Positions 2,484-53,768 of a stretch of 64,000 nucleotides of DNA are shown piece after piece. Position 1 is the stretch's first letter, and the number at the start of each line of letters is the position of its first letter. Under the pieces are notes generated by a model. It saw nothing but the letters and a program-made list of their open reading frames with translations, was not told the origin of the DNA and searched no databases. The DNA lies in NCBI GenBank assembly GCA_033182465.1, contig CP137326.1, positions 2,139,501 through 2,203,500 of the forward strand. Reading direction: 5' to 3'. The position numbers and the translations under genes are program-made. This stretch comes from Sanghuangporus weigelae (lineage: Eukaryota; Basidiomycota; Agaricomycetes; Hymenochaetales; Hymenochaetaceae).

Positions 2484-4209
2484 TCATGCAGTCTCTTCCC
2501 GTCCAACGTCTTCTGCCTCGCTTCCCCTGCACAACTATGAGTCGCTTATCGGCACGCAAAGAATAGAAACCTAACCTTTGTGCATTACCTGATATGGCAA
2601 AGTTCATCTCACTGACGGTATCTGATGGTACTCTGTAACTTGTTCCTTCATTTTGGCCTCGTTCTCCTGCTTCCTTGAGGTTAAACAGCATTCGAGTGCC
2701 GAGAAGAGACAGGAGAGCTGGATTTCCAAGAGAGCTCAGGATATTTGAGAGGACCTGGTTTTCAATCTGTAGTTTGAAGCTTAAGACGGCGACCACGGAA
2801 CAGGAGATGACGTTGACAAGCCTCTCAGCTATCTCATGTGGAAATCACAGGAGGAACACTACCCACAGCATAAAATACAAGACTTGGTCTCGTATGAGAA
2901 CTTTGGCAAGTGTGAGCCCTCGGAAACCAGCAGACTCTTTCCAATATGCGGAAGCTTTGTAAAGCGCGAGTCCCATGAGGACCACTCCGTACCCGACAGG
3001 AATCGTCCTTGATCAAAATTCGTGGCTATGTAAGTCATTACTGATATTGATCTATAGAACTCACCAATCAATCATTCCCCATTTCCATGGAGGGATCGTG
3101 TCCAAGGTGCATACCGTCACACCCTCGGCAAGACCCCCAACTGCGACTGTACGTGGTGTAAACACCAGTAGCACCTTTTGAGAAAACTGATTCACTGTGC
3201 TCCGTCACGTCGAGATAGTTGATCAGCGCGATTTTGAAGCTTGCTTCCAATGCGAGTAGCAACTTGAGGCAAATTGACAAAGTCCTATCTAGACTAATAT
3301 GAGCGCGGTCACTAAAGAAAGCTACCGCTTACTTTGTGAATAAAGCGCCAGGACGCGGATAATGAGGATATCTTAGAGTGTGTGAGTTGACAGGCCACAA
3401 ATAGTCGCTTTATCACTTACAATCAATCGAGGTAATCGTTATCCAGTCTAAACGGCAGTGAGTAACTTGCTCGGGAGAATCAATCATATTCGCACTTGCG
3501 ATATCGCTCGCCCATTGGGAGAAGGAACCTGATGCATGCAATCAGTGCGAAGATCATCGTCATAGTTTCGCAGCTAACTTACACCTTGATGCAAAAGACT
3601 GTGGTCAACAGGGATAGTATATACGCCTGATAGAAGATAAACTTACAGGTGAACGTTCGCGCTATACGAATTCCCTTTGTACATGTAGATGATCAGTTCC
3701 ACAAGATATCACATATAACTATTGTATCCTCACAGAGTAGTCGGGCAACAGATCCGAAGATCATGATGTAACGGTTCTTCGTTATCCGGCTTCAACACGG
3801 AGTTTGGTGGGTAGCTCAATTCTACGTACCATGTAGTATACAAAATCAACCTCTTTTTGAGGTACTTTCTTCAAGATGGTAAATACGCTGCGCTGGAGTA
3901 TTCGAGAGAAGGAAAACGAACCCAGAAATATGTCGCCTGACGGTTGAATGTATCAGCTTTTTTATGCACAAAGACGGCATATAGCCATCTCACCTCTTTA
4001 TCCATTGTGACCACTTCCTTTGGCGTCAATTACAAGATATGAAACCGCTAGGTTGTGCACTTACGGGCATCATACACCAAGAGAGCGAGAATGGCCATTT
4101 GAAAGTACTGATTCAGAGTTTGTTCTGACACCCAAAGTGGGACTTCACTGGGATCAATAGCCTCGATGGATGAACGGACAGAAAGCATCGCAGGGGATGA
4201 GCTTGACAT
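2484..4209 (-). CDS. DUF6533 seven-helix membrane protein, copy 1
   Basis: Left edge copy and clearly diverged from the rest. Fourteen exons can be followed with the same phases as copy 5, and I see no lesion. Landmarks: SVRSSIEAIDPSEVPLWVS leader; first helix ending LLVYDA; MDKE; a 15-nt exon encoding ATYFW; KVPQKEVDFVYYM; NRYIMIFGSVARLL; ILIIRVLALYSQ; a fourth helix from LSICLKLLLALE; a loop with VTVC; RDQVLYFML; and the family C-terminal signature LGTRMLFNLKEAGERGQNEGT. The last exon, after an intron of 49 nt, gives a short acidic tail ending ETA and stops at 2484. An upstream in-frame ATG at 4314 exists, but the family leader begins at 4209. The function of DUF6533 proteins is unknown; the topology resembles receptor-like seven-helix proteins. 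Confidence 0.85.
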
Positions 4210-7911: not shown

Positions 7912-10279
7912 CCGCCGCCTCCATCAATTCCCGTTTCGCTCTCTCTGGGTTCATCGACGTTAGGATAAGGTGGTACTGAAATAATGTAATGATTCACCTT
8001 TGAGGAGGCGCCGGCTCATCAAAATCCATATCGCTTATCGTCTTAGAAGTAGGGCTCCGCGCGTAACCGTATACGGGGACGGCCGTATAAAGGAAGACCG
8101 CATGCGGGGACGGTCGTATTTTTACCGGCCGTATGAAGGGATTCTGGGACCTGATACGGTTACGGGATGCCTGGATACGCCGTATACGCCGTATACGGCA
8201 AGTCCATCTATAATATATCATTTCAACCGAAGGGTCATTTAGAAAATTATTTTGATTGATCTATATTATATTATCAACACAGATTAGTGTAAAATCAGTT
8301 CACTTCGAGACCGGTTAGTAAGTACTAGTGATTTTGAAAAGAGATTAGATAAGAAATCATTTACCTAATACCATGAGAAAACTGTTGTCGGACCCTAGCA
8401 AGGCCTGAATTGGTCCGAGAAATGCTTGATTTGGACCTTTTGCCTAGATAAGGGTGAAATGAATGAGCACCGGATAAAATACTCTGTGATTTTATATGAT
8501 TTCCTTGTTGGACTTACCGAGTGATAGGTAGTCTCCGGATACGGCGTATACGGCGTATACGTCAATTTCTGGCAAGTTGTGGGACGGACATGGCCGCACA
8601 TATACGGCCCGTATATTCCCCTCCCAGAGAGTAGTACGGACACGGTCGTATCCGTATACGATGCGGCCCGTACCCGTAAAGTACGGATACGTGCGGAGCC
8701 CTACCTAGAAGGTACACTGCAGCTTGTCCCTTCGTTCTGACCTCGTTCACCCGCTTCTTTCAAATTGAATAGCATCCGGCTACCGAGGATGGTAAGGAAA
8801 GTCGGATTTCCGAAGGCATCTAGGATATCTGAAAGGAATTCGCTCGAGACTAGCAATCTGAATTCAAGAATGGCAAATATGCAACAGGCGATCACCCTGA
8901 ATATACGATCATCAGCCTAGTTAGTTGGTGAAAGTTGTTTAGAGCTTACAGCATAAAATACAAAACCTGGTCTCGTAAAAGAACCTTGAGAAGCATAAAT
9001 CCCTTGAATCCAGAATTCAACTTCCAGTATTCAGCTGCCTTGTAGAGAGCAAGGATCATGAGAATTGCCCCGTATATCATCGGAATCACCCTGGTACGGT
9101 TTGAGTGCCGGTTCACATAACACCAAGTCACTCACCAGTCAACTATCCCCAATTGCCAAGGAGGATCGTTGTCATATCCACAGACCGTCACATTCTTAGC
9201 AAGACCATGGACAGCGTCTCAAGTCGATATTAGTAATTATGCGTCCGGAATGACGTTGAACTCACTATGCTGTATATCGTCCAGATAGATCATCAATACT
9301 AGCTTAAAGACTGCCTCCAGCATTAACAATAGGTTGAGGCATATAGACAATCGAGTATCTAAATATAAATCAGCACGCTTCCTCGCTGGCTAACATAGTA
9401 ACCTACCTTGTGAATAGAGCGCAAGTACTCGGATCATAAGGATGTCTGCGAAGACGGTGAGTTAGTAAGCTGGAGACAAGCTTTCGTGACGCACAGTCGA
9501 TCGAAATGATTGTCACCCAGTCTGATTGCTCGTCAGCGATAGTTTTGGAAAAAACCCTTGTACACTCACTGGCACTATTTGTCGTCCAATACGCGAAGTT
9601 ACCTGACCTCAAGTTATTCCGTCGATTCACACATCATTAAGACTCAGCTGCTTACACCTGGAATGAAGAAAATATTAGACGAAAGGCGCGAGGGAATCAG
9701 ATAACTGACGTTACAATATCTACGCCGTATACATCCCCTTCAGCATCAGAAGTGATCAGTTGTATTGAAACACATATGAGTAAAATGGATTTCACAAAAC
9801 AGAAATGCGACCGATCCGAAGATACCAATGTATCGATTCTGTGATAATCGCTCAACGGACATATCACTCGCGCCAAGTTGTACATACCAGAAAATAGACA
9901 TAGTCGATCGCTCTTTGAGGGACCTTCTGTAGTAAGCATAATAGTCGATTTAAATTCCAGATGAGAGACAAAGATATATCTACCCAAAAGTACTTCGCCT
10001 GAAGATTGAATAGGCTCCTGAGAATGAGGTGTTGTCTAGAGAGGCATAATGCTCACCTCCTTATCGAGCGTAATGACTTTCGATACGATCATCATAGGTG
10101 CAGATAAACCAAGCAAGAAGCTCACGAGCATCGTAGACCAAGACGGTGACAGTTGCTACTTGAAAGTACTGATCGATGGTTGATTCAGAGACCCAGAGAG
10201 GGACCTGACTAGGATCTATAGGTTCAACCTCCGATCGAACTGAAAGGACTCCGAGATGATGGCTAGTGGAATTAGTCAT
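7912..10279 (-). pseudogene. DUF6533 copy 2, interrupted by a hAT-type MITE
   Basis: Same exon order as copy 5 and identical in sequence to copy 7 over 8803..11257. The MITE at 8050..8703 sits in exon 13 inside the PSR^TISDMDF tail; its first bases create a stop right after PSR, removing about 35 residues of the cytoplasmic tail but none of the helices. In addition the 48-nt exon 6 is one base short, as in copy 7, which would stop translation if that exon is included. If exon 6 is skipped the membrane core stays in frame, so a truncated product is still conceivable. Confidence 0.75.
8050..8703. mobile_element. hAT-type MITE (654 bp)
   Basis: Terminal inverted repeats start TAGGGCTCCGC (8050..8060) and end with its complement GCGGAGCCCTA at 8703. 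Flanking 8-bp target duplications are CTTAGAAG (8042..8049) and CCTAGAAG (8704..8711), one mismatch. Copy 7 has the empty site with a single CCTAGAAG at 43848..43855. An 8-bp duplication with TAGGG-type ends fits the hAT superfamily. Both ends are packed with CCGTATACGG-like palindromes, as expected of subterminal transposase-binding repeats. No transposase is encoded, so it is non-autonomous. Confidence 0.88.
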
Positions 10280-10291
10280 GAGCTAGGAATG

Positions 10292-12620: not shown

Positions 12621-12739
12621 ATTAATCATGGCAGCCAAGGAAACGCTGGGGGGAAAAGGCGGTCTTTTTCGAGGGCTCGCACAAAAGAACGTGTTGCGCT
12701 CCCGGAATACAGAACGATGGATATAGTAAAGTCTAATGA

Positions 12740-13954: not shown

Positions 13955-16900
13955 TCATGCCTGTCCGTCGTCTCCATCAATTCCCGTTTCGCTCTCCCTG
14001 GGTTCGTCGAAGTTAGAACAAAGTGGCACGGAAATAATGTAATGATCCACCTTTGAGGAGGCGCTGGCTCAGCAAAATCAATATCGCTTATCGTCCTGGA
14101 TGTTGACCTGTAGCTCGTCCCTTCGTTCTGACCTCGTTCTCCAGCTTCTTTCAAGTTGAATAGCATCCGGCTACCGAGGATGGTAAGGAAAGATGGGTTC
14201 CCGAGAGCATTTAGGATACCCGCAAGGAAGTCATTCGAAAATTGCAATCTGAATTCAAGAATGGCAAATACGCAACAGGCGATTACCCTGGGAAAGACGA
14301 CTGTCAGCCTAGTTCTCGGAAGTGAGTTAGAGCTTACAGCATAAAATATAAGACTTGATCTCGTATGAGAACCTTGACAAGTACGAAGCCCTTGAACCCA
14401 GCGGACATCTTCCAGTACTCGGCTGCCTTGTAGAGAGCAAGGATCATAAGGATCGCTCCATATGTCATTGGAATCAACCTGTACAAGAATGAGAGTTTGT
14501 TTGTATTATGGCACTTCACTCACCAGTCGACCATCCCCAATTGCCAAGGAACGATATTGTCGTATCCACAGACGGTCACATTTTTGGCAAGAGCACCAAC
14601 AGCGACTGAAGTCGATGTGAGCATTTCTGCGAACGGGAAGGCATTGAACTCACTATGTTGTATCACTCCCAGATAGATCATCAATGATAACTTGAAGACT
14701 GCCTCGAGTATTAACAATAGGGTGAGGCACATAGACAATCGAGTATCTAAACAGAAATGAGCATACTTCCTCGCTGGCATAACCACCTACTTTGCGAATA
14801 GAGCGCAAGTACTCGGATCATAAGGATGTCTGCGAAGACTGTGAGTCGGTAGACTGGGTACAATCTCTGACGACTCACAGTCGATCGAAATGATTGTGAC
14901 CCAATCTGATTAGTCGTCAGCGATGCTTCTGAGAAAACTCCAGATGTGCTTACTAGCAGTATTTATCGACCAGCCGGCAAAGTTACCTGACCCGAAGTTA
15001 TTCCGTTGATTCACGCATCATCGAGACTCGACCGCTCACACCTGAATCGAAGAAAGTATTAGACGAAAGGCGCGAGGAGATCAGATAGACTGACAGTGCA
15101 ATATCTACGCCATATCCATTCCCTTCAGTACCAGAAATGATCAGTTTTGTTGAAACACGTATAAGTGAAATGGATTTCACAAAAGAGATATGCAACCGAT
15201 CCGAAGATACCAACGTATCGGTTCTGTGATGACCGTTCAACGGACATATCATGGGCACCAAGTTGTACGTACCAGAAAGTAGACATAGTCGACCGCTCTT
15301 TGAGGGATCTTCTGCATCAAGCATAGTAGTCGATTTAAATTCCAGATGAGAGAAAAAAGGCTGAGCTACCCAAAAGTACTTTGCCTGAAAGTCGAGTCGA
15401 CTCTGTTAAGAATATATCATCGTTATCGTTGTGATCGTCAGATTTGAGTTCGGACTGTTTTTCCTTTTCTATTTTCTTTATAAACGACCAGCCGCTTGTT
15501 ATAACACCTCAGTCTTCTACTATATTCATCAGACTGAGGTGAGGGTCTTTTACCATTCCGGACAGTATTATATCCTTACATTCGTTTGTAGCACATTCTC
15601 AATAGGTTATGAGCCTTGGGCCGGCCGCTGAACGAACGCCATAGATAGAACACGTTTATGCCCGTATACACTAGACATCAGAGGGAATCAAATAACGACC
15701 CACTCCCCGCTTTAGACCTAGACCCGTGGTTATCCAATACAGATCGATTCCAACCTAGAGCATCGTACTCGGTAGGATCTTCGGTGGCACAGACTCCATC
15801 TTCTCTCAGCTCTCTTACAACACTTCCAAGCAACATGTCAGCCCGTCAATCCAGAACCCACTCTGCGTCTCCCCCCCCAGATACCAATCCAGAACAAGCA
15901 CATATATCGCCGGTTCCTAGCCGTGAGTCTCTTGAGGATCTTGCTAGTCAACCCATTCCCCAACCATCACAATCGCAAAACCGGCCCAACTCTGCCCGGT
16001 CTCCCGAACTTGACACGGAGACCCTCTTCCAAAGGTTTAATCAAGAATTCTCTCTAGTTCCCGTGGCTAAGACTCCTACCGTCGAGACTAAGATCAAGCA
16101 ACCTTGGGAATACCGTGTCAAGGAGTTCTCCGATTCCAACCACCTGAAACCAGACGGCTCAAACTTCATCTCTTGGAAGAAAGTGCAACTAGTGATTCTC
16201 AGAACTCACAAGTGGATTTCTCATGCCGAAGGCTCGTCTATCCCTCCCTCTGATGTCACCAGTAAAGCATATGATGTCTGGCAAACTGTGGACAACTTGA
16301 CGACTTCTCAGATTGCGATGAACATGGACTTCGATCTCTACGGCGAGCTTGGTGATGAATTGGACTCTGCTGCCGAACTCTGGAGAGCGATCAATTCCCG
16401 ATTTTCAAAGAAGACCTCTGCTGCGCGTTCTACTTCAAAGCTGAATCTGGATAGTAAAAGGATTCAGCCAGGTGAGAAGATGAAGGACCATATAAAGACA
16501 CTTCGAAATCTGAAAGCTCAGTACATCAACTGCGGTGGCAAGATGGACAATGACGATTGGCATACCACTATCATTAATTCGCTATCAGACCATGAACAGT
16601 GGAAATCCTTGGCTGTCTTCGGGCACTCTCTACCCCTCCCAGACCAGATGATCGCATTCCTTGAAGACCAGGATGCACGCGGTTATGCAAAACCATCTAA
16701 ATCTGAGGCTGCTCTTCAAACGAGACCCCAACCTCGTCCTCGCTTCCGTATCCGATGCCCTAATTGTAACCGTACTGGTCACTCTCTACAAGACTGCTGG
16801 GCTCCAGGGGGGGGTGCAACTAGTAGGCGCCCGCAGAACTATCGGATGCCGCCTGACTTTGCTCAGCGAGAACACGCCAACATTAGCGCTCAAATAGCTG

Positions 16901-19900: not shown

Positions 19901-20612
19901 ATAACCAAGCAGCAATCCTTATGACCAAGAATCCTGTTTACCTGTCTAAGACGAAACATATAGACATCCCTGCACACCACATTCGAGACGAAGTTCACAA
20001 AAGGCGCATTCGTTTGGTACATGTCAACGGAAACGAAAACCCCGCCAATATCCTCACTAAACCTCTTGGTGCCACTCTACATGAACGGTGTCTGGCTTTA
20101 CTTGGAATGAAATGAGTCCTACCAACGACACAACGAGGGGGGGTGTTAAGAATATATCATCGTTATCGTTGTGATCGTCAGATTTGAGTTCGGACTGTTT
20201 TTCCTTTTCTATTTTCTTTATAAACGACCAGCCGCTTGTTATAACACCTCAGTCTTCTACTATATTCATCAGACTGAGGTGAGGGTCTTTTACCATTCCG
20301 GACAGTATTATATCCTTACATTCGTTTGTAGCACATTCTCAATAGACTCCTGAGAACGGCATAATGGTCTAGAGAGGCATAGCACTCACCTCCTTATCAA
20401 GCGTAATGACTTTCGATACGGTCAGTATCGGTGCAGATACATTGAGCAGTGAACTCACGGGCGTCGTAGACTAAGACGGTGACGACTGCTGTTTGGAAGT
20501 ACTGTTGGACAGCTACTCCAGAGACCCACAGAGGGACCTCCTTAGGGTCTATAGGCTCAGGCTCCGATCGAACAGAAAGGATCCGAAGATGCTGACTGAT
20601 AGAATTAGACAT
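13955..20612 (-). CDS. DUF6533 membrane protein, copy 3, with a copia element in intron 2
   Basis: All fourteen exons are readable with correct phases, including exon 6. Start at 20612 (MSNSISQHLRILSVRSEPEP), exon 2 at 20390..20409 (ITLDKE), exon 3 ending at 15384 (AKYFW), stop at 13955. The copia retrotransposon 15404..20344 lies wholly inside intron 2, whose original length was about 59 nt (15385..15403 plus 20350..20389), and in the opposite orientation to the gene. Splice donor and acceptor are untouched, so the protein could still be made if a roughly 5-kb intron can be removed, but failure or premature termination is more likely. In all other respects this is one of the best preserved copies. 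Confidence 0.78.
15404..15604 (+). repeat. 5' LTR of copia element 1
   Basis: 201 bp, begins TGTTAAGAAT and ends CTCAATA. Contains TATAAA at about 15479..15484 and a perfect 11-bp stem (15505..15515 with 15531..15541) around a 15-nt loop. Confidence 0.93.
15605..15619 (+). promoter_or_regulatory. Primer-binding site of copia element 1
   Basis: GGTTATGAGCC directly follows the LTR and is complementary to the anticodon-loop region of initiator tRNA-Met (GGCTCATAACC). Priming by a cleaved half of that tRNA is known for Drosophila copia. The same motif follows the other copia LTR at 36443. Confidence 0.8.
15658..20115 (+). CDS. Copia gag-pol polyprotein
   Basis: Single frame of 1485 residues. 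From the N-terminus: a disordered S/P/Q-rich stretch; a UBN2-type gag region (about 130-350); a CCHC zinc knuckle; an aspartic protease with the DSGATSHMT motif; a GAG-pre-integrase HHCC region; an integrase core of the DD35E type; a copia-type reverse transcriptase (RVT_2) including the YLHSPL and THVDD motifs; and RNase H with FSDSDWAGD and AEAEYI. Length and order are those of a complete fungal copia element. Confidence 0.94.
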   Translation: MPVYTRHQRESNNDPLPALDLDPWLSNTDRFQPRASYSVGSSVAQTPSSLSSLTTLPSNMSARQSRTHSASPPPDTNPEQAHISPVPSRESLEDLASQPIPQPSQSQNRPNSARSPELDTETLFQRFNQEFSLVPVAKTPTVETKIKQPWEYRVKEFSDSNHLKPDGSNFISWKKVQLVILRTHKWISHAEGSSIPPSDVTSKAYDVWQTVDNLTTSQIAMNMDFDLYGELGDELDSAAELWRAINSRFSKKTSAARSTSKLNLDSKRIQPGEKMKDHIKTLRNLKAQYINCGGKMDNDDWHTTIINSLSDHEQWKSLAVFGHSLPLPDQMIAFLEDQDARGYAKPSKSEAALQTRPQPRPRFRIRCPNCNRTGHSLQDCWAPGGGATSRRPQNYRMPPDFAQREHANISAQIAALERQRANLYVPASPRGDDFETARVTIQHRIGDAAMIANNVGLSRESWVFDSGATSHMTNDRSNFTSYEEIQPIPISTAHDRAQLLWGVGRGTVLGSFEYNGEITVVPVKDVLYVPNVSINLLSLLQLHRKGIRIFSDDEHIHFMVRGTPYTRASVVMNQWIMDMSVSHERAHLVTEKNNVKQPLHVWHERLAHIDARRVEEIARDNLAEGIQLAESESNNSCEACVLSKMPALRADSKELRAVKPGDIVHSDLEFMGHKSFSGATISLKFVDEYSNYVWCHSIQDKSAHTILSFWKALCNSLKTQHSVTVKALHSDNGAEFVNHAMDEFNQQHGITHHLTVPFRHEMNGRAERMNRTGSNAVRAMLQFADLPPIYWAEAYNTFIYIHNRCGRSHRGNATPYEVLHGTKPTIDHIRTFGSPGYVHVVPEKRRKLDAKATKLILVGYRDNAAYRMIDPNTKKISYSRDVIFDEFRSFRVNDLQVNSNSATSSISSATPPLPLRSSSRVPKMTGKAIASAEQHKSLSFLDRAPQKDEHLYSTTSLRNISIPRSAHEALVSDQSNEWHAAMLYEIAKLDQMDVWDVVEKPDDLHVIKGMWVFSLKEQADGTLEFRARWVARGDSQVPGLEFGETFAASGDFISARFVCALSCQEHTQLVTLDISSAYLHSPLIESDLVVEYPTGFSVPNLIHPCCHLKKALYGLRQGARAWADHFTAKLSDIGFERCISAPTVYIRSDSEGGRTIMSTHVDDCTAAPMSLTLSGPNSADCLRTDIRKHFDFKEKDPRAGANTLGLTLKYDEINGAVKLTLAQKIERAVERYGMKNAHTARTPMAQDALNTFATDDLPAEANPPWPYAQLVGELLWFATVLRMDICFSVNMLARYLQKPTRTHWEAALRVLRYLKGTKDLGIVYERKKDRELLAFSDSDWAGDATDRKSISGYVFMYAGGPIAWKSRKQTVVAKSTAEAEYISVSACAQEAIWFRHLMKELGMDLTESPLDIHVDNQAAILMTKNPVYLSKTKHIDIPAHHIRDEVHKRRIRLVHVNGNENPANILTKPLGATLHERCLALLGMK
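20144..20344 (+). repeat. 3' LTR of copia element 1
   Basis: 201 bp, no difference from 15404..15604 seen. Followed by the second GACTC target duplication and then the rest of DUF6533 copy 3 intron 2. Confidence 0.93.
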
Positions 20613-22200: not shown

Positions 22201-22379
22201 CATGGCAGCTAAGGAAACGCTGGAAAAAATCCTTGTCGAGGACTCGTGCAAGAGAACAACGTGGTGCACTCCCGGAATACAGAACGACGGATCATGCCTC
22301 TCTGCTGTGTTCACTGGTTCCCGTTTCGCTCTTCCTGAATCAATCACAGTCAGAATCAAGCTGACCAGAAGACGTCTAA

Positions 22380-22950
22380 TGACTGACTTTCGAGGATGCG
22401 CTGGCTCAGCAAACCCCGTTTCGCTTATCCTCATAGATGGTGTCCTGTAACTTGTTCCTTCATCCTGACCTCGTTCTCCTGGCTCATTGGCTCGATAGCA
22501 TTCATCTTCTGAGAATGGCGAGGAAACGTCATGTTTCCGAGGAAGATTACGACATTTGCCACAAGTGAATTCAGTTCCGACCTGAATTGGAGAATAGCAG
22601 AGACGGAAGAAGCAAAACTCACGGCATCACGTACAGGACTTGTTCTCCGAATGAGAACCTTGACAAGAAGAAATCTAGCGGACATCTTCCAGTATTCTGT
22701 CGCCCTGTAGAGAGCAAGAATCATAAGGACGACTCCGTATGTCATAGTAATTAACTTATTACAGATTGGGCACTTGCTTAAATTGTACCACTTCACTCAT
22801 CAGCCGACCATTCTCGATTGCCAAGAAGTTCTGCCATTGAATCCACAGACTGTCACATCCTTGGGAAGACCGCAGCAGAGTTATCAGTCGCAACCACACA
22901 TACCTGGTTCGGACCAGCCTTCCCGACCTCAGACGAGATAATCTCCTTCC
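22380..22950 (-). pseudogene. DUF6533 remnant B3
   Basis: Minus strand keeps TYGVVLMILALYRATEYWKMSA and the RTSPVRDAV-like continuation (near 22620-22750) and the LAIENGRL loop exon near 22800-22830. The N-terminal exons are absent. Confidence 0.65.
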
Positions 22951-23632: not shown

Positions 23633-25434
23633 TCATCTCGGACAAGAAACTTCAGCAAAATGAATACAGTCTATGTCTGGGTCCTCTATGAGAACTATTC
23701 CGTCGCTGGATCCACGGAAGGTTGGTCGTGCCTGTCCGTCATCTCCATCAGTTCCCGTTCCGCTCTCCCTGGGTTCGTCGAAGTTAGGGTAAGGTGGTAC
23801 GGAAATAATGTAATGATTCACCTTTGAGGAGGCGCCGGTTCAGCAAAGTCAATATCGCTTATCATCCTAGACGGTGCCCTGTAGCTTATCCCTTCGTTCT
23901 GTCCTCGTTCTCCAGCTTCTTTCAAGTTGAATAGCATCCGGCTACCGAGGATGGTAAGGAAGGCTGGGTTCCCGAGGGCATTAAAGACCTCTGAAAGGAA
24001 TTCATTCGAGAATACCACCCTGAACCCAAGAATGGCAAATATGAAACAGGCGATTACCCTGGGAAAGACGATCATCAAACTAGTCCTCGGAAGTGAGCTA
24101 GAGCTTACAGCATAAAATACAAAACTTGATCTCGTATGAGAACCTTGACAAGCACGAATCCCTTGAATCCAGCAGACATCTTCCAATATTCAGCAGCCTT
24201 GTAAAGAGCAAGGATCATTAGGATCGCTCCATATGACATTGGAATCAACCTGTACAAGAATGAGAGTCTGTTTGCATTGCAGCGTTTCACTCACCAGTCG
24301 ACCGCCCCCAATTCCCAAGGAGCATCGTTGTCGTATCCGCAAGCCGTCACATTTTTGGCAAGACCACCGACTGCGACTGAAGTCGATGTGAGCGCTCCTG
24401 CAACCGGGAAGGCATTGAACTCACTATGCTCTATAACTCCCAGATAGATCATCATTGCTAACTTGAAGACTGCCTCCAGCATTAGCAATAGGGAGAGGCA
24501 CATAGACAATCGAGTATCTAAACAGATATGAGCACACTTCCTTGCCAACATAACTACCTACTCTGCGAATAGAGCGCAAGTACTCTGATCAAAAGGATGT
24601 CTAAGAAAACGATGAGTCGTTAGACCGGGCACAATCTCCGACGACTCACAGTCGATCGAAATGATTGTCACCCAGTCTGATTGGCCGTCAGCGATGCTTT
24701 TGGGAAAACTCTTTGGATGCTCACTGGCAATATTTCTCGTCCAATCGGCAAAGTTGCCTGACCTGAAGTTATTCCGTTGATTCGCACATCACCAAGACTC
24801 GACCGCTCACATCTAAATCGAAGAAAATATTAGACGAAAGGCACGAGGGAATCAGACAAACTGACAGTGCAATATCTACGCCGTATGCATCCCCTTCAGT
24901 ACCAGAAATGATCAGTTTTGTTGAACATGCATGAGTGAAATAGATTTCACAAAAGAGAAATGCAACCGATCCGAAGATACCAACATATCGGTTCTGTGGT
25001 GACCATTCAACAAACATATCACTCGTGTCGAGTAGTACGCACCAGAAAATATACATAGTCGACCGCTCTTTGAGGGACCTTCTGTAGCAAGCATAATAGT
25101 CGATTTAAACTCCAGATGAGAGACAAAGATGAACTTACCCAGAAGTACTTCGCCTGAAGGTCGATTCGGCTCCTGAGCATGACATACTGATCTAGAGAGG
25201 CATAACACTCACCTCCTTATCGAGTGTAATGACTCTCGACACGGTCAGTATTGGTGCAGATACACAAGCAATGAACTCACGGGCATCGTAGACTAAGGCG
25301 GTGACGACTGCTACTTGAAAGTACTGCCCGAGGGCTACTTCAGAAACTATAAGAGGAACCTCATTAGGATCTATAGACTCAGGCTCCGATCGAACAGAAA
25401 GGATCCTGAGAGGCTGAATTGTAGAGCTAGACAT
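23633..25434 (-). CDS. DUF6533 membrane protein, copy 4, extended C-terminus
   Basis: Exons 1-5 (25281..25434, 25213..25232, 25139..25153, 25043..25081, 24951..24993) and 7-14 follow copy 5. The donor after the 48-nt exon 6 has become AT instead of GT (near 24811), so this copy probably skips exon 6; that keeps the frame and gives a cysteine at the junction. The usual stop after DGDDGQA is lost and the frame runs 30 codons further (RPTFRGSSDG...AEVSCPR) to a stop at 23633. All helices and the LGSRMLFNLKEAGERGQNEG signature are present. Confidence 0.78.
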
Positions 25435-27060: not shown

Positions 27061-27239
27061 GACAGCCAAGGGAAAATAAAAAAATAAAAACGATCCTTGT
27101 TGAGCACCCTGCATGGAAAATAGAAACGTGTCGTACTCCCGGATGACAGAACGAGGGGTCATGGCTGTCAGCTGTTTTCACTGGTTCCCGCTTCGCTCTC
27201 CCTGAATTGATCGCAGTCAGAATACAGAAAACGTCTAAT

Positions 27240-27830
27240 AACTGACTTTTGACGATGCACTGCCTCAGCAAACACATTTCGCTTAGCATTGTTGGATGGT
27301 GTCCTGTGACTTGTTTCTTTGTTCTGACGTCATTCTCCTGCTTTATTTGGGCTAAATAGCATTCGACTTCTGAGAACGGTGAGGAAACGTCATGTTTCGA
27401 ATGGATCTTATGACAGAATTCACTTCCAACCTGAAATGAAGAATAGCAAACACGGAACAGTAACGCTGGGAAAGCGACAGTCAGTGTAGTACTCGGAAAG
27501 TAACCCAAAACTCACGGCATAACGTACAGGACTTGTTCTCGAATGAGAACCTTGACAAGAAGAAATCTAGCGGACATCGTCCAATATTTTGTCTCCCTGT
27601 AGTAGAGAGCAAGAACCATAAGGATGGCTCTGTATAGATATCAACTTGAAACAGATTGAGTGCTTGTTCATATTTTTCTACTTTACTTGCCAGACGACCA
27701 TCCCATTGATCGCCAAAAAGTTCTGCCATTGACTCATCGGACCGTCACATCTTTTTGAAGTGTTTGTATTGCCCTGGAAGACCGCAACAGAGTCATCAGT
27801 CGCAACCACACATACCGATTCAGACCGTGA
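27240..27830 (-). pseudogene. DUF6533 remnant B4
   Basis: C-terminal signature region around 27310-27380 and the RDQVLY-equivalent exon near 27520-27560 are recognisable at the nucleotide level. No open frame spans them. Confidence 0.6.
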
Positions 27831-28543: not shown

Positions 28544-30261
28544 TCATGCCTGTCCGTCGTCTCCATCAATTCCCGCTTCGCTCTCCCTGGGTTCATCCAA
28601 GTTAGGATAAGGTGACACGGAAATAATGTAATGATCTACCTTTGAGGATGCGCCGGTTCAGCAAAGTCAATATCACTTATCGTCCTAGATGGTGCTCTGT
28701 AGCTTGTCCCTTCGTTCTGACCTCGTTCTCCAGCTTCTTTCAAGTTGAATAGCATACGGCTGCCAAGGATGGTAAGGAGAGCCGGGTTTCCGAGGGCATC
28801 TAGGATAGCTGAAAGGTATATATTCGAGACTTCCACCCTGAACTCAAGAATGTCAAATATGCAACAGGCGATTACCCTGGGAAAGACGATCATCAACTAG
28901 TCCTCGGAGGTGAGCTAGAGCTTACAGCATAAAATATAAGACTTGATCTCGAATGAGAACCTGGACAAGCATGAACCCCTTGAATCCAGCAGACATCTTC
29001 CAGTATTCAGCTGCCTTGTAGAGAGCAAGGATCATTAGGATCGCTCCGTATGTCATTGGAATCAACCTGTACAAGAATGAGAGTCTGTTTACATTGCGGC
29101 ACTTCACTCACCAGTCGACCATCCCCAATTGCCAAGGAGGCTCGCTGTTGTCGTATCCACAGACTGTCACATTTTTGGCAAGAGCACCAACAGCGACTGA
29201 AGTCGATGTGAGCAATTCTGCGAATGGGAAGGCATTGAACTCACTATGCTCTATAACGCCCAGATAGATCATCAATGATAACTTGAAGACTGCCTCCAGC
29301 ATTAACAATATAGTGAGGCACACAGACAATCGGGCGTCTAAAAAAACCAGAATTGAGCACGCTTCCTGGCCAACATAACTACCTACTTTGCGAATAAAGC
29401 GCAAGTACGCGGATCATAAGGATGTCTGCGAAACCGATGAGGCGTTAGATCGGACGTAATCTCCAACTACCCACAGTCGATTGAAATGATCGTCACCCAG
29501 TCTGATTGGTCATCAGCGATGTCTTTGAGAAACTCCTTGTATGCTCACTGGCAGTATTTCTCGTCCAATCGGTAAAGTTGCCTGATCCGAAGTTATTCCG
29601 TTGATTCACGCATCATCGAGACACGACCACCCACACCTGAAATGGAGAGAATATCAGACAAAAGGCGCGAGGGAATCAGAGAAACTGACGTTGCAATATC
29701 CACGCCATATACATCCCCTTCGGTACCAGAAATGATCAGTTTTGTTGAAACACATACGAGTGAAATGAATTTCACAAAAGATAAATGCGACCGATCCGAA
29801 GATACCAATGTATCGATTCTGTGATGACCGCTCAACGGACATACCACTGGCGCCAAGTTGTGCGTACCAGAAAATAGACATAGTCGACCGCTCTTTGAGG
29901 GACCTTCTGTAACAAGCATAATAGTCGATTTAATCTCCAAATGGGAGACAAAAGGTAGAGCTACCCAGAAGTACTTCGCCTGAAAGTTGAATAGACTCCT
30001 GAGAACGTCATAATGGTCTAGACGGGTATAATACTCACCTCCTTATCGAGCGTAATGACTTTCGATATGGTCAGTATTGGTGCAGATACATTGAGCTGTG
30101 AACTCACGGGTGTCGTAGACTAAGACGGTGACAACTGCCATTTGGTAGTACTGCTGAAGGACTATTTCAGAAACGACAAGAGGGACCTCATTAGGGTCTA
30201 TAGGCTCAGGCTCCGATCGAACCGAAAGGACCCCGAGATGCTGACTGGTAGAGTTAGACAT
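28544..30261 (-). CDS. DUF6533 membrane protein, copy 5 (reference copy, intact)
   Basis: Best preserved copy. Exons (minus): 30108..30261, 30039..30058, 29965..29979, 29868..29906, 29776..29818, 29637..29684, 29549..29581, 29475..29501, 29387..29425, 29245..29337, 29112..29196, 28926..29066, 28640..28876, 28544..28586; 1017 nt, 338 aa, all GT-AG and in phase. Helix 1 about 34-55 with VLVYDTLITLDKE, then AKYFW; NRY at 77-79 starts helix 2; 91-106 is the possible cassette exon; helix 3 WVTIISIDYILMIRVLALYS (119-138); helix 4 from 143; loop Cys183 in VTVCGYDN; helix 5 YGAILMILALYKAAEYW; helix 6 DQVLYFMLVIACCIF; last helix and LGSRMLFNLKEAGERGQNEG near 283-302; acidic tail DGDDGQA. Plasma-membrane receptor-like role is inference; no DUF6533 function is established to my knowledge. 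Confidence 0.9.
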
Positions 30262-32460: not shown

Positions 32461-32589
32461 GCACCGGGTAAAGAATACATACGATCCTTGTCGAGGACTC
32501 TGTATGGAAAGAGAAATATGTGTCGCCCTCCTGTTCTCACTGGTTCCTGTTTCGCTCTCCCTGGATCGCAGTCAGGATCAGGCTGACAC

Positions 32590-33215
32590 AATAAACGTCT
32601 ACTGTCTGACTTTTGAGAATGGGCTAGCTCAGCAAACACCGTCTCGCTTATCCTCGTTTACGGCGCCTTGTACTTGGTCCTTCTTTCTTTCCTCGTTCTT
32701 CTGATTCCTCTCGGTTGAACAACATTCGACTTCCGAGAATGGTGAGGAAACGTCATGTTACCGAGGGATCTTATGACATTTATCGCATGCAAATTCGTTC
32801 CCAACCTAAATCGGAGAATAGTAGACACGAAAGAAGCAATAACGCCGGGAAAAGATCATCAGTGTAGTTCTCGGAAAGTAACGTAAAACTTACAGCCTAA
32901 CGTACAGGACTTGATCTCGGATGAGAACCTTGACAAGCACAAATCATTCGAATCCAGTGGACGCTTTCCAGTTTTCCGTCGCTCTGTAGAGAGCAAGAAT
33001 CTTAAGGATGGCTCCGTATGTCATCGGGATTAACTTGGTACATCAATATTGTACCTGTTTATATTGTACCACTTCACTCGCCAGGCGTCCATTCTCGATT
33101 GTCGAGGAGTCCCGCCATTAAATTCACGGACTGTCTCATATGGAAGATCGCAACAGAGTCATAAGTCACAATCACACATACCAGTTCAAACAACCCTTCC
33201 CGACCTCAGACGAAC
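32590..33215 (-). pseudogene. DUF6533 remnant B5
   Basis: Signature region around 32660-32740, RDQVLYVR-type exon near 32900-32930, and the loop exon near 33080-33110. N-terminal part missing as in the other B remnants. Confidence 0.6.
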
Positions 33216-33895: not shown

Positions 33896-35604
33896 TCATG
33901 CTTCTCCGTCGTCACCATTAATTCCCGATTCGCTCGCCCTGCGTTCATCCAAGTTAGGATAAGGTGACACGGAAATAATGTAATGATCTACCTTTGAGGA
34001 TGCGCCGGTTCAGCAAAGTCAATATCACTTATCGTCCTAGATGGTGACCTGTAGCTTGTCCCTTCGTTCTGACCTCGTTCTCCAGCTTCTTTCAAGTTGA
34101 ATAGCATCCGGCTGCCGAGGATGGTAAGGAGAGCCGGATTTCCGAGGGCATTGAGGATAGCTGAAAGGAATATATTCGAGACTTCCACCCTGAACTCAAG
34201 AATGTCAAATATGCAACAGGCGATTACCCTGGGAAAGTCGATCATCAATCTAGTCCTCGGAAGTGAACTAGAGCTTACAACATAAAATATAAGACTTGGT
34301 CTCGTATGAGAACCTTGACAGGCATGAACCTCTTGAAACCAGCAAACATCTTCCAGTATTCAGCTGCCTTGTAGAGAGCAAGGATCATAAGGATTGCTCC
34401 GCATGTCATCGGGACCATCCTGGTACGGAGTGAGTGCCTGATTACAGTACACCTCCTTACTCACCAGTCGACCATCCCCAATTGCCAAGGAGGATTGTTG
34501 TCATATCCACAGATCGTCACATTTTTGGCAAGACCACCGACAGCGACTGAAGTCGATGTGAGCATTTCTGCGAACGGGAAGGCATTGAACTCACTATGCT
34601 CTATAACGCCCAGATAGATCATCAATGATAACTTGAAGACTGCCTCCAGCATTAACAATATAGTGAGGCACACAGACAATCGGGCGTCTAAACAGAATTG
34701 AGCACGCTTCCCCGCCAACATAACTACCTACCTTGTGAATAGAGCGCAAGTACTCGGATCATAAGGATGTCTGCGAAACCGATGAGGCGTTAGACCGGAC
34801 GCAATCTCTGACGACTTACAGTCGATTGAAATGATTGTCACCCAGTCTGATTGGTCGTCAGCGATGTTTTTGAGAAACTCGTTGTATGCTCACTGGCAGT
34901 ATTTGTCGTCCATTGGGCAAAATTACCTGACCCAAAGTTATTCCGTTGATTCACGCATCATTTAGACTCGACCACTCACACCTGAATCGAAGAAATATTA
35001 GACGAAAGGCTCGAAGAAATCAGACAAACTTACAGTGCAATATCTACGCCGTATTCATTCCCTTCAGTACCAGAAATGATCAGTTTTGTTGAAACACGTA
35101 TGAGTAAGATGGATTTCACAAAGAAGATTTACAACCGATCCAAAGATGCCAACGTATCGATTCTGTGATGACCGTTCAACGGACATATCACTCGCGCCAA
35201 TTTGTACATACCAGAAAATAGACATAGTCGACCGCTCTTTGAGGGACCTTCTGTGTAAGCATAATAGTTAATTTAAACTCCAGATAAGAGACAAAATGCT
35301 GAGCTACCCAGAAGTACTTCGCCTGAAAGTTGAATAGACTCCTGAGAACGTCATAATGGTCTAGACGGGTATAATACTCACCTCCTTATCGAGCGTAATG
35401 ACTTTCGATACGGTCAGTATCGGTGCAGATACATTGAGCTGTGAACTCACGGGCGTCGTAGACTAAGACGGTGACGATTGCTACTTGAAAGTACTGCTCG
35501 AGGGCTAGTTCAGAAACCGAAAAAGGGACCTCATTAGGGTCTATAGGTTCAACCTCTGATCGAACAGAAAGGAACCTGAGAGGGTGACTTGTGGGGATAG
35601 ACAT
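33896..35604 (-). CDS. DUF6533 membrane protein, copy 6
   Basis: Start 35604 (MSIPTSHPLRFLSVRSEVEPIDPNEV), stop 33896 (tail GINGDDGEA). Exons 1-5 and 7-14 match copy 5 in phase. The cassette exon 6 (near 34985-35031) is one base short, which breaks the frame if it is included but not if it is skipped. Substitutions in the helix 5-6 loop (MFAGFKRFMPVK) are conservative. Its upstream region has no AKR fragment, so it has lost part of the unit. Confidence 0.75.
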
Positions 35605-36122: not shown

Positions 36123-36442
36123 TGTTGAAATTCGAGTGTTCTATATGTGCGACTCGACCTTTTCCTTCCGATCTCCACTTTCTTAGAATAGTTTTTTATC
36201 GATCACATGGAGTTTCCTTTACATTTTCTTTCCCTCGTCTATTATGTCACGCGTGGCTGACACAGCCTATATCAACATCTACTGCGCATGCCACTCACCT
36301 CAGTCGTTCACTGCTACTACGACTGAGGTGAGTCACATTTCTTTCTTGCTTTATTCTTTTTATTCACTATACCGTGCATGTAGAATTACAAAAGGTGAAT
36401 ACACAGAGTCATTCACTGCTACTACGACTGAGAATTACAAAA
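36123..36442 (+). repeat. 5' LTR of copia element 2
   Basis: Begins TGTTGAAATTC, ends GAATTACAAAA. Holds a 14-bp perfect stem (36293..36306 with 36320..36333) and a partial direct repeat of the TTCACTGCTACTACGACTGA segment near its end. Confidence 0.9.
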
Positions 36443-42445: not shown

Positions 42446-42765
42446 TGTTGAAATTCGAGTGTTCTATATGTGCGACTCGACCTTTTCCTTCCGATCTCCA
42501 CTTTCTTAGAATAGTTTTTTATTGATCACATGGAGTTTCCTTTACATTTTCTTTCCCTCGTCTATTATGTCATGCGTGGCTGACACAGCCTATATCAACA
42601 TCTACTGCGCATGCCACTCACCTCAGTCGTTCACTGCTACTACGACTGAGGTGAGTCACATTTCTTTCTTGCTTTATTCTTTTTATTCACTATACCGTAC
42701 ATGTAGAATTACAAAAGGTGAATACACAGAGTCATTCACTGCTACTACGACTGAGAATTACAAAA
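42446..42765 (+). repeat. 3' LTR of copia element 2
   Basis: Partner of 36123..36442; the few differences are all transitions. Same internal 14-bp stem. Confidence 0.9.
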
Positions 42766-43707: not shown

Positions 43708-45423
43708 TCAAGCCTGCCCGTCGTCTCCATCAACTAAAGTTTCGTTCTCCCTGAGTTCATCGAAGTCAGGATAAGGTGGCACTGAAATAATGTAATGATT
43801 TACCATTGAGGACACACAGGCTCATCAAAGTCCATATCGCTTATCGTCCTAGAAGGTACACTGTAGCTTGTCCCTTCGTTCTGACCTCGTTCTCCTGCTT
43901 CTTTCAGGTTGAATAGCATCCGGCTACCGAGGATGGTAAGGAAGGCCGGATTTCCGAAGGCATCTAGGATATCTGAAAGGAATTCGCTCGAGACTAGCAA
44001 TCTGAATTCAAGAATGGCAAATATGCAACAGGCGATCACCCTGAATATACGATCATCAGCCTAGTTAGTTGGTGAAAGTTGTTTAGAGCTTACAGCATAA
44101 AATACAAAACCTGGTCTCGTAAAAGAACCTTGAGAAGCATAAATCCCTTGAATCCAGAATTCAACTTCCAGTATTCAGCTGCCTTGTAGAGAGCAAGGAT
44201 CATGAGAATTGCCCCGTATATCATCGGAATCACCCTGGTACGGTTTGAGTGCCGGTTCACATAACACCAAGTCACTCACCAGTCAACTATCCCCAATTGC
44301 CAAGGAGGATCGTTGTCATATCCACAGACCGTCACATTCTTAGCAAGACCATGGACAGCGTCTCAAGTCGATATTAGTAATTATGCGTCCGGAATGACGT
44401 TGAACTCACTATGCTGTATATCGTCCAGATAGATCATCAATACTAGCTTAAAGACTGCCTCCAGCATTAACAATAGGTTGAGGCATATAGACAATCGAGT
44501 ATCTAAATATAAATCAGCACGCTTCCTCGCTGGCTAACATAGTAACCTACCTTGTGAATAGAGCGCAAGTACTCGGATCATAAGGATGTCTGCGAAGACG
44601 GTGAGTTAGTAAGCTGGAGACAAGCTTTCGTGACGCACAGTCGATCGAAATGATTGTCACCCAGTCTGATTGCTCGTCAGCGATAGTTTTGGAAAAAACC
44701 CTTGTACACTCACTGGCACTATTTGTCGTCCAATACGCGAAGTTACCTGACCTCAAGTTATTCCGTCGATTCACACATCATTAAGACTCAGCTGCTTACA
44801 CCTGGAATGAAGAAAATATTAGACGAAAGGCGCGAGGGAATCAGATAACTGACGTTACAATATCTACGCCGTATACATCCCCTTCAGCATCAGAAGTGAT
44901 CAGTTGTATTGAAACACATATGAGTAAAATGGATTTCACAAAACAGAAATGCGACCGATCCGAAGATACCAATGTATCGATTCTGTGATAATCGCTCAAC
45001 GGACATATCACTCGCGCCAAGTTGTACATACCAGAAAATAGACATAGTCGATCGCTCTTTGAGGGACCTTCTGTAGTAAGCATAATAGTCGATTTAAATT
45101 CCAGATGAGAGACAAAGATATATCTACCCAAAAGTACTTCGCCTGAAGATTGAATAGGCTCCTGAGAATGAGGTGTTGTCTAGAGAGGCATAATGCTCAC
45201 CTCCTTATCGAGCGTAATGACTTTCGATACGATCATCATAGGTGCAGATAAACCAAGCAAGAAGCTCACGAGCATCGTAGACCAAGACGGTGACAGTTGC
45301 TACTTGAAAGTACTGATCGATGGTTGATTCAGAGACCCAGAGAGGGACCTGACTAGGATCTATAGGTTCAACCTCCGATCGAACTGAAAGGACTCCGAGA
45401 TGATGGCTAGTGGAATTAGTCAT
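43708..45423 (-). CDS. DUF6533 membrane protein, copy 7
   Basis: Identical to copy 2 over 43947..46401 but without the MITE. Exons followed: 45270..45423, 45201..45220, 45128..45142, 45032..45070, 44950..44992, exons 7-8, 44551..44589, 44410..44502, 44280..44361, 44094..44234, 43804..44040, 43708..43750. Ends VDGDDGQA. Exon 6 is one base short, which would cause a stop; skipping it gives a continuous product with the junction cysteine. The loop intron between helices 4 and 5 has diverged but keeps GTGAGT and AG. Confidence 0.75.
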
Positions 45424-46401: not shown

Positions 46402-46413
46402 TGGTCCTCGTCT

Positions 46414-48075: not shown

Positions 48076-49756
48076 TCACGTTTCACTCTGCCTGGATTCA
48101 CCAAAGTTAGGATAAGGTGGCACGGAAATAATGTAATAATTTACCTTTGAGGAGGCGCCGGTTCAGCAAAGTCAATATCGCTTATCATCCTAGATGGTGT
48201 CCTGTAGCTGGTCCCTTCGTTCTGACCTCGTTCTCCAGCTTCTTTCAAGTTGACTAACATCCGGCTACCGAGGATGGTAAGGAAAGCTGGGTTTCCGAGG
48301 GCACTTAGGATGTCTGAAAGGAACTCATTCGAGACTTCCACCCTGAACTTAAGAATGGCAAATATGCAACAGGCGATTACCCTGGGAAAGATGATCATCA
48401 AACTAGTCCCCGGAAGTGAGCTAGAGCTTACAGCATAAAATATAAGACTTGATCTCGAATGAGAACCTGGACAAGCATGAACCCCTTGAAGCCAGCAGAC
48501 ATCTTCCAGTATTCAGCTGCCTTGTAGAGAGCAAGGATCATAAGGATTGCTCCGTATGTCATTGGGACCATCCTGGTACAGAGTGAGTGCCTGATTACAG
48601 TACACCTCCTCACTCACCAGTCGACCATCCCCAATTGCCAAGGAGGATTGTTGTCATATCCGCAAGCCGTCACATTTTTGGCAAGACCACCGACAGCGAC
48701 TGAAGTCGATGTGAGCAATTCTGCGAATGGGAATGCATTGCACCCACTATGTTCTATAACGGTTCCATAGATCAGCAATCCTAACTTTAAGACTGCCTCC
48801 AGCATTAACAAGAGGGAGAGGCACATAGACAATCGAGTATCTAAACAGATATGAGCACGCTTTCTTGCTAACATAACTATCTACTTTGCGAATAGAGCGC
48901 AAGTACTCGGATCATAAGTATGTCTGCGAAGATGGTGAGTCAGTCGGCTGGAGACAAGCTTTGATGGCTCACAGTCGATCGAAATGATTGTGACCCCGTC
49001 TGATTGCTCGTCAGCGGTGTTTTCGAGAAATCGTTAGGTGTGCTCACTGGCAATATTTCTCATCCACCCGGCAAAGTTACCTGATTCGAAGTTATTCCGT
49101 TGATTCACGCATCATCGAGACTCGACCGCTCACACCTGAAATGAAGAAAATATTAGACGAAAGGCGCGAGGGAACCAGATAAACTGACATTGCAATATCT
49201 ACGCCGTATACATGCCCTTCAGTACCAGAAATGATCAGTTTTCTTGGACATGCATGAGTGAAATAGATTTCACAAAAGAGAAATGCAACCGATCCGAAGA
49301 TACCAACATATCGGTTCTGTGGTGACCATTCAACAGACATATCACTCGTGTCGAGTAGTACACACCAGAAAATATACATAGTCGACCGCTCTTTGAGGGA
49401 CCTTCTGTAGTACGCATAATAGTCGATTTAAACTCCAGATGAGAGACAAAGAGAAACTTACCCAGAAATACTTCGCCTGAAGGTCGATTCGGCTCCTGAG
49501 AACGGCATACTTGTCTAGAGAGGAATAATGCCCACCTCCTTATCGAGCGTAATGACTTTCGATACGGTCAGTATCGGCAGATACATCAAGAAATGAACTC
49601 ACGGGCATCGTAGACTAAGACGGCGACGACAGCTACTTGAAAGTACTGCCCGACCATCATTTCAGAAACCCAAAGAGGGACCTCATTAGGGTCTATAGGT
49701 TCGATCTCTGGTCGAATAGAAAGGACTCCGAGATGCTAACTGGTGGTATTAGACAT
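48076..49756 (-). pseudogene. DUF6533 copy 8, stop at codon 7
   Basis: Begins MSNTTS then TAG at 49736..49738; after that the leader HLGVLSIRPEIEPIDPNEVPLWVSEMM and all later exons, including the full-length 48-nt exon 6, are in frame. A start at the MM pair (about codon 33) would still keep helix 1, so an N-terminally shortened protein is possible. The last exon ends early (RQSET, stop at 48076). Called pseudogene with reserve. Confidence 0.65.
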
Positions 49757-52054: not shown

Positions 52055-53768
52055 TCATGCCTCCTCATTACGTCCTTCGACATCCGTTTCGCTGTCCCTA
52101 GACGATAATCAGCCTAAAGCCATCAAAGAGAAACAGAAACAAGACCTTTGTGCATTTACTGGCTCCGCGAAATCGATCTCGCTTATTGTCCGCGATGGCG
52201 ATCTGTAGCTTGTCCCTTCGTTCTGACCTCGCTCTCCGGCCTCCTTGAGGTTGAATAGCATGCGGCTGCCGAGGATGGTAAGGAAAGCAGGGTTTCCAAG
52301 CGCATTTAAGATACCCGCAAGGAAAGCATTCGAGATTTCCAGCTTGAATTGAATGATGTCGAATATGCAGCACGTGATAACGCTGGGGAAATCGGGCATC
52401 AACTCAACTAAGCTCTCGGGAAGTAACGTACAGCTCACAGCATGAAATACAGAACCTGATCTCGAATGAGAACCTTGACTAGCATGAAGCCCTTGAAGCC
52501 AGCGGACATCTTCCAATATTCAGCAGCCTTGTAAAGAGCGAGGACCATAAGGACTGCTCCGTATGCCATTGGAATCACCCTAGCATAAATTGAGCGTTTG
52601 TTAATGCTGCACACCACCTCACTTACCAGTCGATCACTCCCAACTGCCAAGGAACGAGGAGGTCTTGACCACAGATTGTCACGTTTTTAGCGAGACTACC
52701 GACGGCGACTAAAGCTAACATGAGTATTTATGCGACAGCTCAACTGATCGACTCACTACGTTGGAAAATATCCAAATAAATGACCATGGCTAACTTGAAA
52801 AGTGCCTCGAGCATTAATAGCAGGCCGAGAGATAACGACAATCGTCTATCTGTACAGCAATGAGCATGGCTCCTCGTCGACATCATTGCCTACCTTGTGA
52901 ATAGAGTGCAAGGACTCGAATCATAATCTGCAGGGGCGATGAGTAAGTCTAGGCAGAGCAGAGTTTGACGGCTTACAATCGATTGAAATGATTGTCACCC
53001 AAGCTGCTTGAACGTTAGCGATACAATTGAGAAAGATTCAATATCTGCTCACTGGCAATATTTTGAGCCCACTCAGCAAAGTTACCTGACTCGGATTATT
53101 CATTGACACATTTCAACGTTGGGACTCAACCACTCACACCTAAATTTTGAGGAAAGTATTAGGGAAAGTGCGAAAGGGAATTAGAAAAACTGACATTGTA
53201 AGGTCTACACTGTATACATTCCCTTCGACGTTTGAGTGATCAGTTTTGCGGAAATATGCGCTCACGAGTAAAGTAGACCTCACAAAAGAGAAATGCAATT
53301 GCCCCAAAAATGCCAATGTAACGGTTCTGTGACGATAGTCTCATTAGACATGTCATCTAGTTTGAGTTGAACGTACCACAAAATAGACATAGTCAACTGT
53401 ACTTTGTGGAAACTTCTGCAGGAAACCCGTAATTAGTGTAAGTCTCGACTCGAGAAAGGAAAGTATCTTTACCCAAAAGAACTTAGCCTAAAGATCCAAA
53501 CGGTTACCGATGACGATATATTGGTCTAGAAAGGGTAGTCCTCACCTCCTTATCCACCGTAATAACTATTAATGTGCTCAGTATGAGAGTAGAAATATCA
53601 GAAGATAGACTCACGAGTATCGTAGACTAAGACGGCGACGACTGCTACTTGAAAATACTGTCCAGTCGTTTTCACAGTGACCACAGACGGGACTATACTA
53701 GGATCCAATGGCTCAACCTCTGATCGAATAGAAAGAACTTCGAGAAACAGACTAGCCACGTTAGACAT
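52055..53768 (-). CDS. DUF6533 membrane protein, copy 9 (right edge)
   Basis: Diverged edge copy. Start 53768 (MSNVASLFLEVLSIRSEVEPLDP), stop 52055 (tail DSETDVEGRNEEA after a short final intron). Visible: helix 1 VLVYDT; NRYIGIFGAIAFLF; NFAEWAQNIA; WVTIISIDY; RDQVLYFML; LGSRMLFNLKEAGERGQNEG. The block matching exon 6 is 50 nt and would end in TAG, so this copy too works only if the block is skipped. Other splice sites look normal. Confidence 0.75.

What the first reader, a model, noticed from the sequence alone, without database searches (positions are those of the whole stretch)
28544..30261. A 48-nt in-frame block in DUF6533 genes behaves like a cassette exon
In copy 5, exon 6 (29637..29684) is 48 nt and is flanked by introns of the same phase, so it can be included or skipped without changing frame. 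When skipped, the exon 5/7 junction makes a cysteine codon in each copy I read through this junction (T + GT or T + GC). Copies 1, 3, 5 and 8 have a usable block, but copies 2 and 7 (one base short), 4 (donor GT changed to AT), 6 (one base short) and 9 (50 nt, ends in a stop) have lesions in exactly this block and almost nowhere else. This suggests that skipping is the normal or alternative form and that the block is an optional extracellular-loop segment. A junction cysteine could pair with the conserved loop Cys183.
Basis: partly seen in the sequence, partly recalled or inferred. Interest (0 to 1): 0.75.

Follow-up and report, generated by a model that had tools for sequence, protein, structure and literature searches.

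The report
Two-base exon in mushroom receptor-like genes
The supposed optional exon is really the end of an intron, and beside it nine related mushroom-type membrane-protein genes appear to carry a missed 28-base exon and an exon of only two bases that completes a conserved cysteine codon; ultra-small exons are known but rare and easily missed by gene-finding programs.

Summary
The 48-nt block at 29637-29684 exists as described, but it is not a cassette exon. It is the 3' part of an ordinary 53-nt intron (29637-29689) and holds that intron's branch-site-like motif.

The lesions seen in the block in five copies are then plain intron changes. In copy 5 all 14 introns become 45-59 nt. The protein reads NRYIGIFGSVAFIF-WDVYGVDIAT-C-NFTDW, and the 2-nt exon (29635-29636; GT, but AT in copy 4) supplies the first base of conserved Cys101.

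Enumeration finds only two GT-AG solutions that are in frame and open in all nine copies: this one and a direct 194-nt intron. None of 10,000 column or block shuffles gives a solution with an internal exon.

No transcript data and no homologue outside the window were available, so the splicing is inferred. One-nucleotide exons are published for plants and Fusarium. This is therefore a new member of a known kind, notable for repetition across a tandem family and for a ratchet-like AG|GT|GTRAGY site.

The parts
28544..30261 (-). DUF6533 gene copy 5, 15 predicted exons, 332 aa
   Evidence: PF20151 match
29776..29818 (-). exon 5 (43 nt, NRYIGIFGSVAFIF + T)
29718..29775 (-). intron 5 (58 nt, gtgaaa..ccgaag)
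29733..29741 (-). AACTGATCA, branch-site-like motif, invariant in the 8 distinct copies, 17-18 nt before the exon-6 acceptor
29637..29689 (-). intron 6 (53 nt, gtcagt..tttcag)
29635..29636 (-). exon 7, two bases (GT); second base begins the Cys101 codon
29582..29634 (-). intron 7 (53 nt, gtgggt..gatcag; donor GTRAGY in the other eight copies)
3647..3674 (-). copy 1 exon 6; its exon 7 is 3583-3584
9710..9737 (-). copy 2 exon 6; its exon 7 is 9656-9657
15095..15122 (-). copy 3 exon 6; its exon 7 is 15040-15041
24866..24893 (-). copy 4 exon 6; its exon 7 is 24811-24812 (AT)
35034..35061 (-). copy 6 exon 6; its exon 7 is 34980-34981
44854..44881 (-). copy 7 exon 6; its exon 7 is 44800-44801
49189..49216 (-). 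copy 8 exon 6; its exon 7 is 49134-49135
53195..53222 (-). copy 9 exon 6; its exon 7 is 53138-53139

Best explanation
The 48-nt block is the downstream part of the intron between them. The two introns flanking exon 7 are probably removed one after the other by intron definition: the acceptor of intron 6 and the donor of intron 7 are two bases apart (..AG|GT|GTRAGY) and could hardly be occupied at once. If intron 6 goes first, exon 6 ends in ..AACGT directly before the intron-7 donor, like a recursive-splicing (ratchet) site with a 2-nt offset. The two exons add ten residues (W..Y....) to the end of helix 2 and the first outer loop and place Cys101 before helix 3, where it may pair with Cys177 of the second outer loop. 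Shown from sequence: the splice-site positions, the frame and their conservation in nine copies. Inferred: that the splicing happens, its order, helix limits and the disulfide.
For: Exon lengths 28 and 2 nt with GT-AG introns hold in 9 of 9 copies (8 distinct sequences here; copies 2 and 7 are identical in this stretch). From exon 5 to exon 8 only four columns have GT in all nine copies and only four have AG; of 20 splice chains (introns 40-220 nt, up to three introns) two are in frame and open in all nine, this one and the direct 194-nt intron, and with introns of 40-120 nt it is the only one of 17. 0 of 5000 column shuffles and 0 of 5000 five-column block shuffles (8 distinct copies, introns 40-70 nt) give any solution with an internal exon. 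In copy 5 the three introns measure 58, 53 and 53 nt; the other eleven 45-59 nt. AACTGATCA in intron 5, 17-18 nt before the exon-6 acceptor, is the longest invariant run in any of the 14 introns; a YTRAY motif lies 16-20 nt before the intron-6 acceptor in 8 of 8 distinct copies. Exons 6 and 7 show no indel in the comparisons. In frame, the exon-6 peptide of the most diverged copy (copy 1) scores BLOSUM62 17-30 against four other copies, -7 to 5 in the other frames. Trp91, Tyr94, Cys101 and Cys177 are invariant in the five proteins aligned of nine copies.
Against: No RNA evidence. No relative found outside the window, so the usual spacing to the Cys in other DUF6533 proteins (about 20 residues after NRY-) is recalled, not tested. 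Exon 6 differs from copy 1 at 49% of sites, within the range of introns (46-66%) and above every other exon (8-48%). Against random mutation, in-frame similarity is notable for copy 1 (0.003-0.059 of simulations reach the observed score, six comparisons) but weak for copy 9 (0.04-0.18, six comparisons). The exon-5 donor gtgaaa of seven copies scores 1.0, below the 5th percentile of the other introns (1.8), though the direct-splice rival uses the same donor. Intron 7 lacks a YTRAY motif in 6 of 8 distinct copies; several other introns of the array lack it too.
Confidence: 0.87

Rival explanations
1. The whole 194 nt is one long intron: exon 5 is spliced directly to the reader's exon 7, and T+GC or T+GT makes the cysteine. 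Exon 6 and the 2-nt exon are not used.
For: In frame and open in 9 of 9 copies; gives a 322-aa protein with the same cysteine. Exon 6 is as diverged from copy 1 as introns are.
Against: A 194-nt intron would be more than three times the longest other intron of copy 5 (59 nt). It does not explain conserved internal GT and AG columns at frame-keeping distances (0 of 10,000 shuffles), the invariant AACTGATCA 17-18 nt before the exon-6 acceptor, the lack of indels in exons 6 and 7, or the in-frame peptide similarity with copy 1.
Confidence: 0.08
2. Exons 6 and 7 together form a 30-nt optional unit: messages with and without them coexist and both keep frame and cysteine.
For: Exon 5 and exon 7 both end in T and the unit is 30 nt, so joint skipping is in frame in 9 of 9 copies. 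Donors of exon 5 and exon 6 are weak in seven copies each.
Against: No transcript evidence. Skipping either exon alone breaks the frame (stops after 104 or 211 aa), and joint skipping would need a 194-nt intron in a gene of 45-59 nt introns.
Confidence: 0.12
3. One reading: the 48-nt block is an optional cassette exon coding an outer-loop segment.
Against: Frame-breaking lengths in copies 2, 6, 7 and 9, no GT donor in copy 4; the donor is outscored two bases downstream in 9 of 9; a branch-site-like motif lies inside it in 8 of 8 distinct copies; inclusion removes the Cys codon.
Confidence: 0.02

Closest known systems
Single-nucleotide exon of APC11 (PMC4674806: abstract, opening text and discussion read)
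   Same: An exon too small for exon definition between two introns, needed for the frame; its authors favour intron definition with the two introns removed one after the other.
   Different: 1 nt, Arabidopsis and rice, tested with constructs; here 2 nt, fungal-type family, nine tandem copies, no RNA.
1-nt microexons of APC11 and VPS55 in land plants (PMC8831610: passages found by term search)
   Same: Conserved, missing from annotations, GTRAGT donor directly behind the microexon in VPS55.
   Different: 1 nt; validated by RNA-seq and RT-PCR; conserved across species rather than across paralogues.
One-nucleotide exon of CYP621A P450 genes in Fusarium (PMC12940212: abstract, introduction, discussion read)
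   Same: Fungal; inferred from a phase mismatch inside a conserved motif; conserved in relatives. The authors call it the first in a fungal gene.
   Different: 1 nt; ascomycete; confirmed by reads. Its introduction says that 2-5 bp exons are known in Arabidopsis, Drosophila and humans (work not read by me).
Recursive splicing at ratchet points (PMC8605326: start of abstract in a search listing only)
   Same: Acceptor directly followed by a donor, stepwise removal.
   Different: There in long Drosophila introns; here introns of about 53 nt, and two bases stay in the message.
Stwintrons of fungi (search listing only)
   Same: Two neighbouring introns that must go in consecutive reactions.
   Different: In stwintrons an internal intron interrupts a splice signal of the outer one; here both introns have intact signals.
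SNB1, a DUF6533 protein needed for fruiting-body patterning (PMC10949477: one passage read)
   Same: DUF6533 domain, called basidiomycete-specific there; seven predicted helices.
   Different: Its gene structure and sequence were not compared here.

Membership tests
DUF6533 (Pfam PF20151) proteins | match to the PF20151 profile above its gathering score | tested here: met
   5 of 5 predicted proteins scanned (of 9 copies), best E 5.4e-14; copy 5 49.6 bits against cut-off 24.1
DUF6533 (Pfam PF20151) proteins | seven transmembrane helices | tested here: inconclusive
   hydropathy computed only over helices 2-3 of copy 5; no topology program or structure prediction run
ultra-small (1-3 nt) exons | exon needed to keep the frame and a conserved motif | tested here: met
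   skipping exon 7 alone in copy 5 gives a stop after 211 aa; Cys codon completed in 9 of 9 copies
ultra-small (1-3 nt) exons | canonical flanking introns conserved in relatives | tested here: met
   GT-AG in 9 of 9 paralogues; no orthologue outside the window available
ultra-small (1-3 nt) exons | inclusion shown in transcripts | not testable with these tools
   no RNA data; no whole genome held for this window
stwintron | internal intron interrupts a splice signal of an outer intron | tested here: not met
   intron-7 donor is intact downstream of intron 6 in 9 of 9 copies: GTRAGY in eight, GTGGGT in copy 5
   lengths 57, 47, 48, 48, 48, 47, 47, 48, 50 in copies 1-9; AT at the donor in copy 4

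The most novel reading that the evidence does not exclude
The AG|GT|GTRAGY site is a built-in splicing switch shared by a tandem family of receptor-like genes. Stepwise removal gives the long-loop protein; skipping the 2-nt exon, or using the GT two bases early, shifts the frame and silences the copy; skipping exons 6 and 7 together gives a short-loop protein that keeps the cysteine. The weak donors in most copies would set the balance between these outcomes.
Probability: 0.1. Interest if true: 0.7.

Novelty: new member of a known kind. Interest (0 to 1): 0.42.

Why it matters
Automatic annotation would be expected to miss a 28-nt exon followed by a 2-nt exon, and so to lose part of the first outer loop or break the frame in this family. 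If transcripts confirm it, a 2-nt exon repeated in nine neighbouring paralogues, with natural variation in the donors around it, is a ready set of comparisons for how spliceosomes that recognise short introns handle an acceptor and a donor two bases apart. It also corrects which residues lie around the conserved outer cysteine of this little-studied seven-helix family.

Tried and rejected
Stwintron: rejected because no splice signal is interrupted. Second-type DUF6533 fragments between the copies as an independent test of exons 5-8: they are relics of the 3' half only (the one read through by eye, 6500-7760; the others from tblastn hits), so they do not reach the region. Relatives elsewhere: nothing confirmed in viral contigs (28 pattern matches in the second, none a relative) or prokaryote genomes (69 pattern matches, none a relative); a 64-aa C-terminal piece found nothing in plasmids; PDB profile search gave two hits, a designed protein at E 0.0057 and a ribosomal protein at 1.8, neither informative. 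Paper searches for a 2-nt exon gave no paper recognisable from its listing as reporting a 2-nt nuclear exon; PMC12940212 mentions 2-5 bp exons. Hits (PMC5241210, PMC7725694, PMC7247714) were seen as listings only. DUF6533 occurs in 2 held papers (one passage of each read).

Full report
What is there. DUF6533 is described as basidiomycete-specific (PMC10949477, one passage). The copies are alternated with 3'-half relics of a second DUF6533 type. All five predicted proteins scanned match PF20151.

Check of the observation. The 48-nt block is at 29637-29684, its lengths in copies 1-9 are 57, 47, 48, 48, 48, 47, 47, 48 and 50 nt (intron 6 minus 5), and copy 4 has AT after it. The exon 5/7 junction gives Cys in 9 of 9 copies. 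The claim that lesions are almost confined to the block fails: copies 2, 3, 4, 8 and 9, and copy 1 at one acceptor, have others.

What it is. The same 28 and 2 hold in 9 of 9 copies. The block then is the intron's 3' part, with its pyrimidine-rich end and a YTRAY motif 16-20 nt before the AG in 8 of 8 distinct copies.

Is it more than chance? From exon 5 to exon 8 there are four columns with GT in all nine copies and four with AG. Of 20 possible splice chains with introns of 40-220 nt, two are in frame and open in all nine: the 28+2 chain and the direct 194-nt intron; with introns of 40-120 nt the 28+2 chain is the only one of 17. Shuffling alignment columns (8 distinct copies) gave no solution with an internal exon in 5000 column shuffles or in 5000 five-column block shuffles.

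Choosing between the two solutions. For 28+2: intron sizes match the other eleven of copy 5 (45-59 nt); AACTGATCA, the longest invariant run in any of the 14 introns, sits 17-18 nt before the exon-6 acceptor; exons 6 and 7 have no indel in the comparisons; the exon-6 peptide of copy 1 resembles the others in frame and not in the other frames; against random mutation this reaches 0.003-0.059 in six comparisons. From memory, other DUF6533 proteins have about 20 residues between NRY- and the Cys, which fits 28+2 (20) and not the direct splice (10); this could not be tested because no relative was found.

How it would work. The two introns around exon 7 cannot easily be recognised at the same moment, since acceptor AG and donor GT are two bases apart. 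Consecutive removal by intron definition, as proposed for the 1-nt exon of APC11 (PMC4674806 discussion), is the simplest mechanism. Skipping exon 7 alone in copy 5 leads to a stop after 211 aa, skipping exon 6 alone after 104 aa, skipping both gives 322 aa in frame. The product of full splicing is 332 aa with Cys101 and Cys177, both invariant in the five proteins aligned. SNB1, another DUF6533 protein, is predicted with its N-terminus outside; on that topology both cysteines would face outward.

Compared with what is known. One-nucleotide exons are known from plants (PMC4674806, PMC8831610) and from Fusarium P450 genes (PMC12940212), and the last paper mentions 2-5 bp exons in Arabidopsis, Drosophila and humans. 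So the kind is known. What is unusual is the repetition in a tandem array of a basidiomycete-type family and the AG|GT|GTRAGY arrangement. It is not a stwintron.

Verdict. The cassette-exon reading is not supported; the most likely content is a missed 28-nt exon and a 2-nt exon. Confidence 0.87 from sequence alone; transcripts would settle it.

Noticed in passing
15404-20345: Copia-type LTR element (1485-aa gag-pol ORF 15658-20115, two 202-nt terminal repeats 100% identical) inserted in intron 2 of DUF6533 copy 3, with GACTC on both sides (15399-15403, 20345-20349): a young insertion.
   Followed up: partly
8042-8711: An insert that makes exon 14 of copy 2 662 nt longer, with terminal inverted repeats (arms 8042-8071 and 8682-8711, 83% complementary): a small DNA-transposon-like element.
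   Followed up: partly
8704-11269 and 43848-46413: 2566-nt segments 99.65% identical, carrying most of copies 2 and 7: a very recent duplication or gene conversion.
   Followed up: no
6542-7139, 12734-13221, 22289-22869, 27156-27704, 32544-33139, 43015-43109, 46808-47338: 3'-half relics of a second DUF6533 type, alternating with the full copies, as if the array grew by duplicating a gene-plus-relic unit.
   Followed up: partly
36123-36442 and 42446-42765: 320-nt direct repeats 99% identical with a Copia reverse-transcriptase fragment (40918-42345) between them: probably a second, partly decayed LTR element.
   Followed up: no
29549-29581 and 29387-29425: Cys101 and the Arg of the IRVLALY motif (Arg126) are 25 residues apart, the spacing recalled for Cys3.25 and Arg3.50 of class A G-protein-coupled receptors (for positions; the comparison is from memory).
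   Followed up: no
2812: Copy 1 lacks AG at the projected intron-13 acceptor (..tgtcaa); an AG further upstream may be used instead.
   Followed up: no
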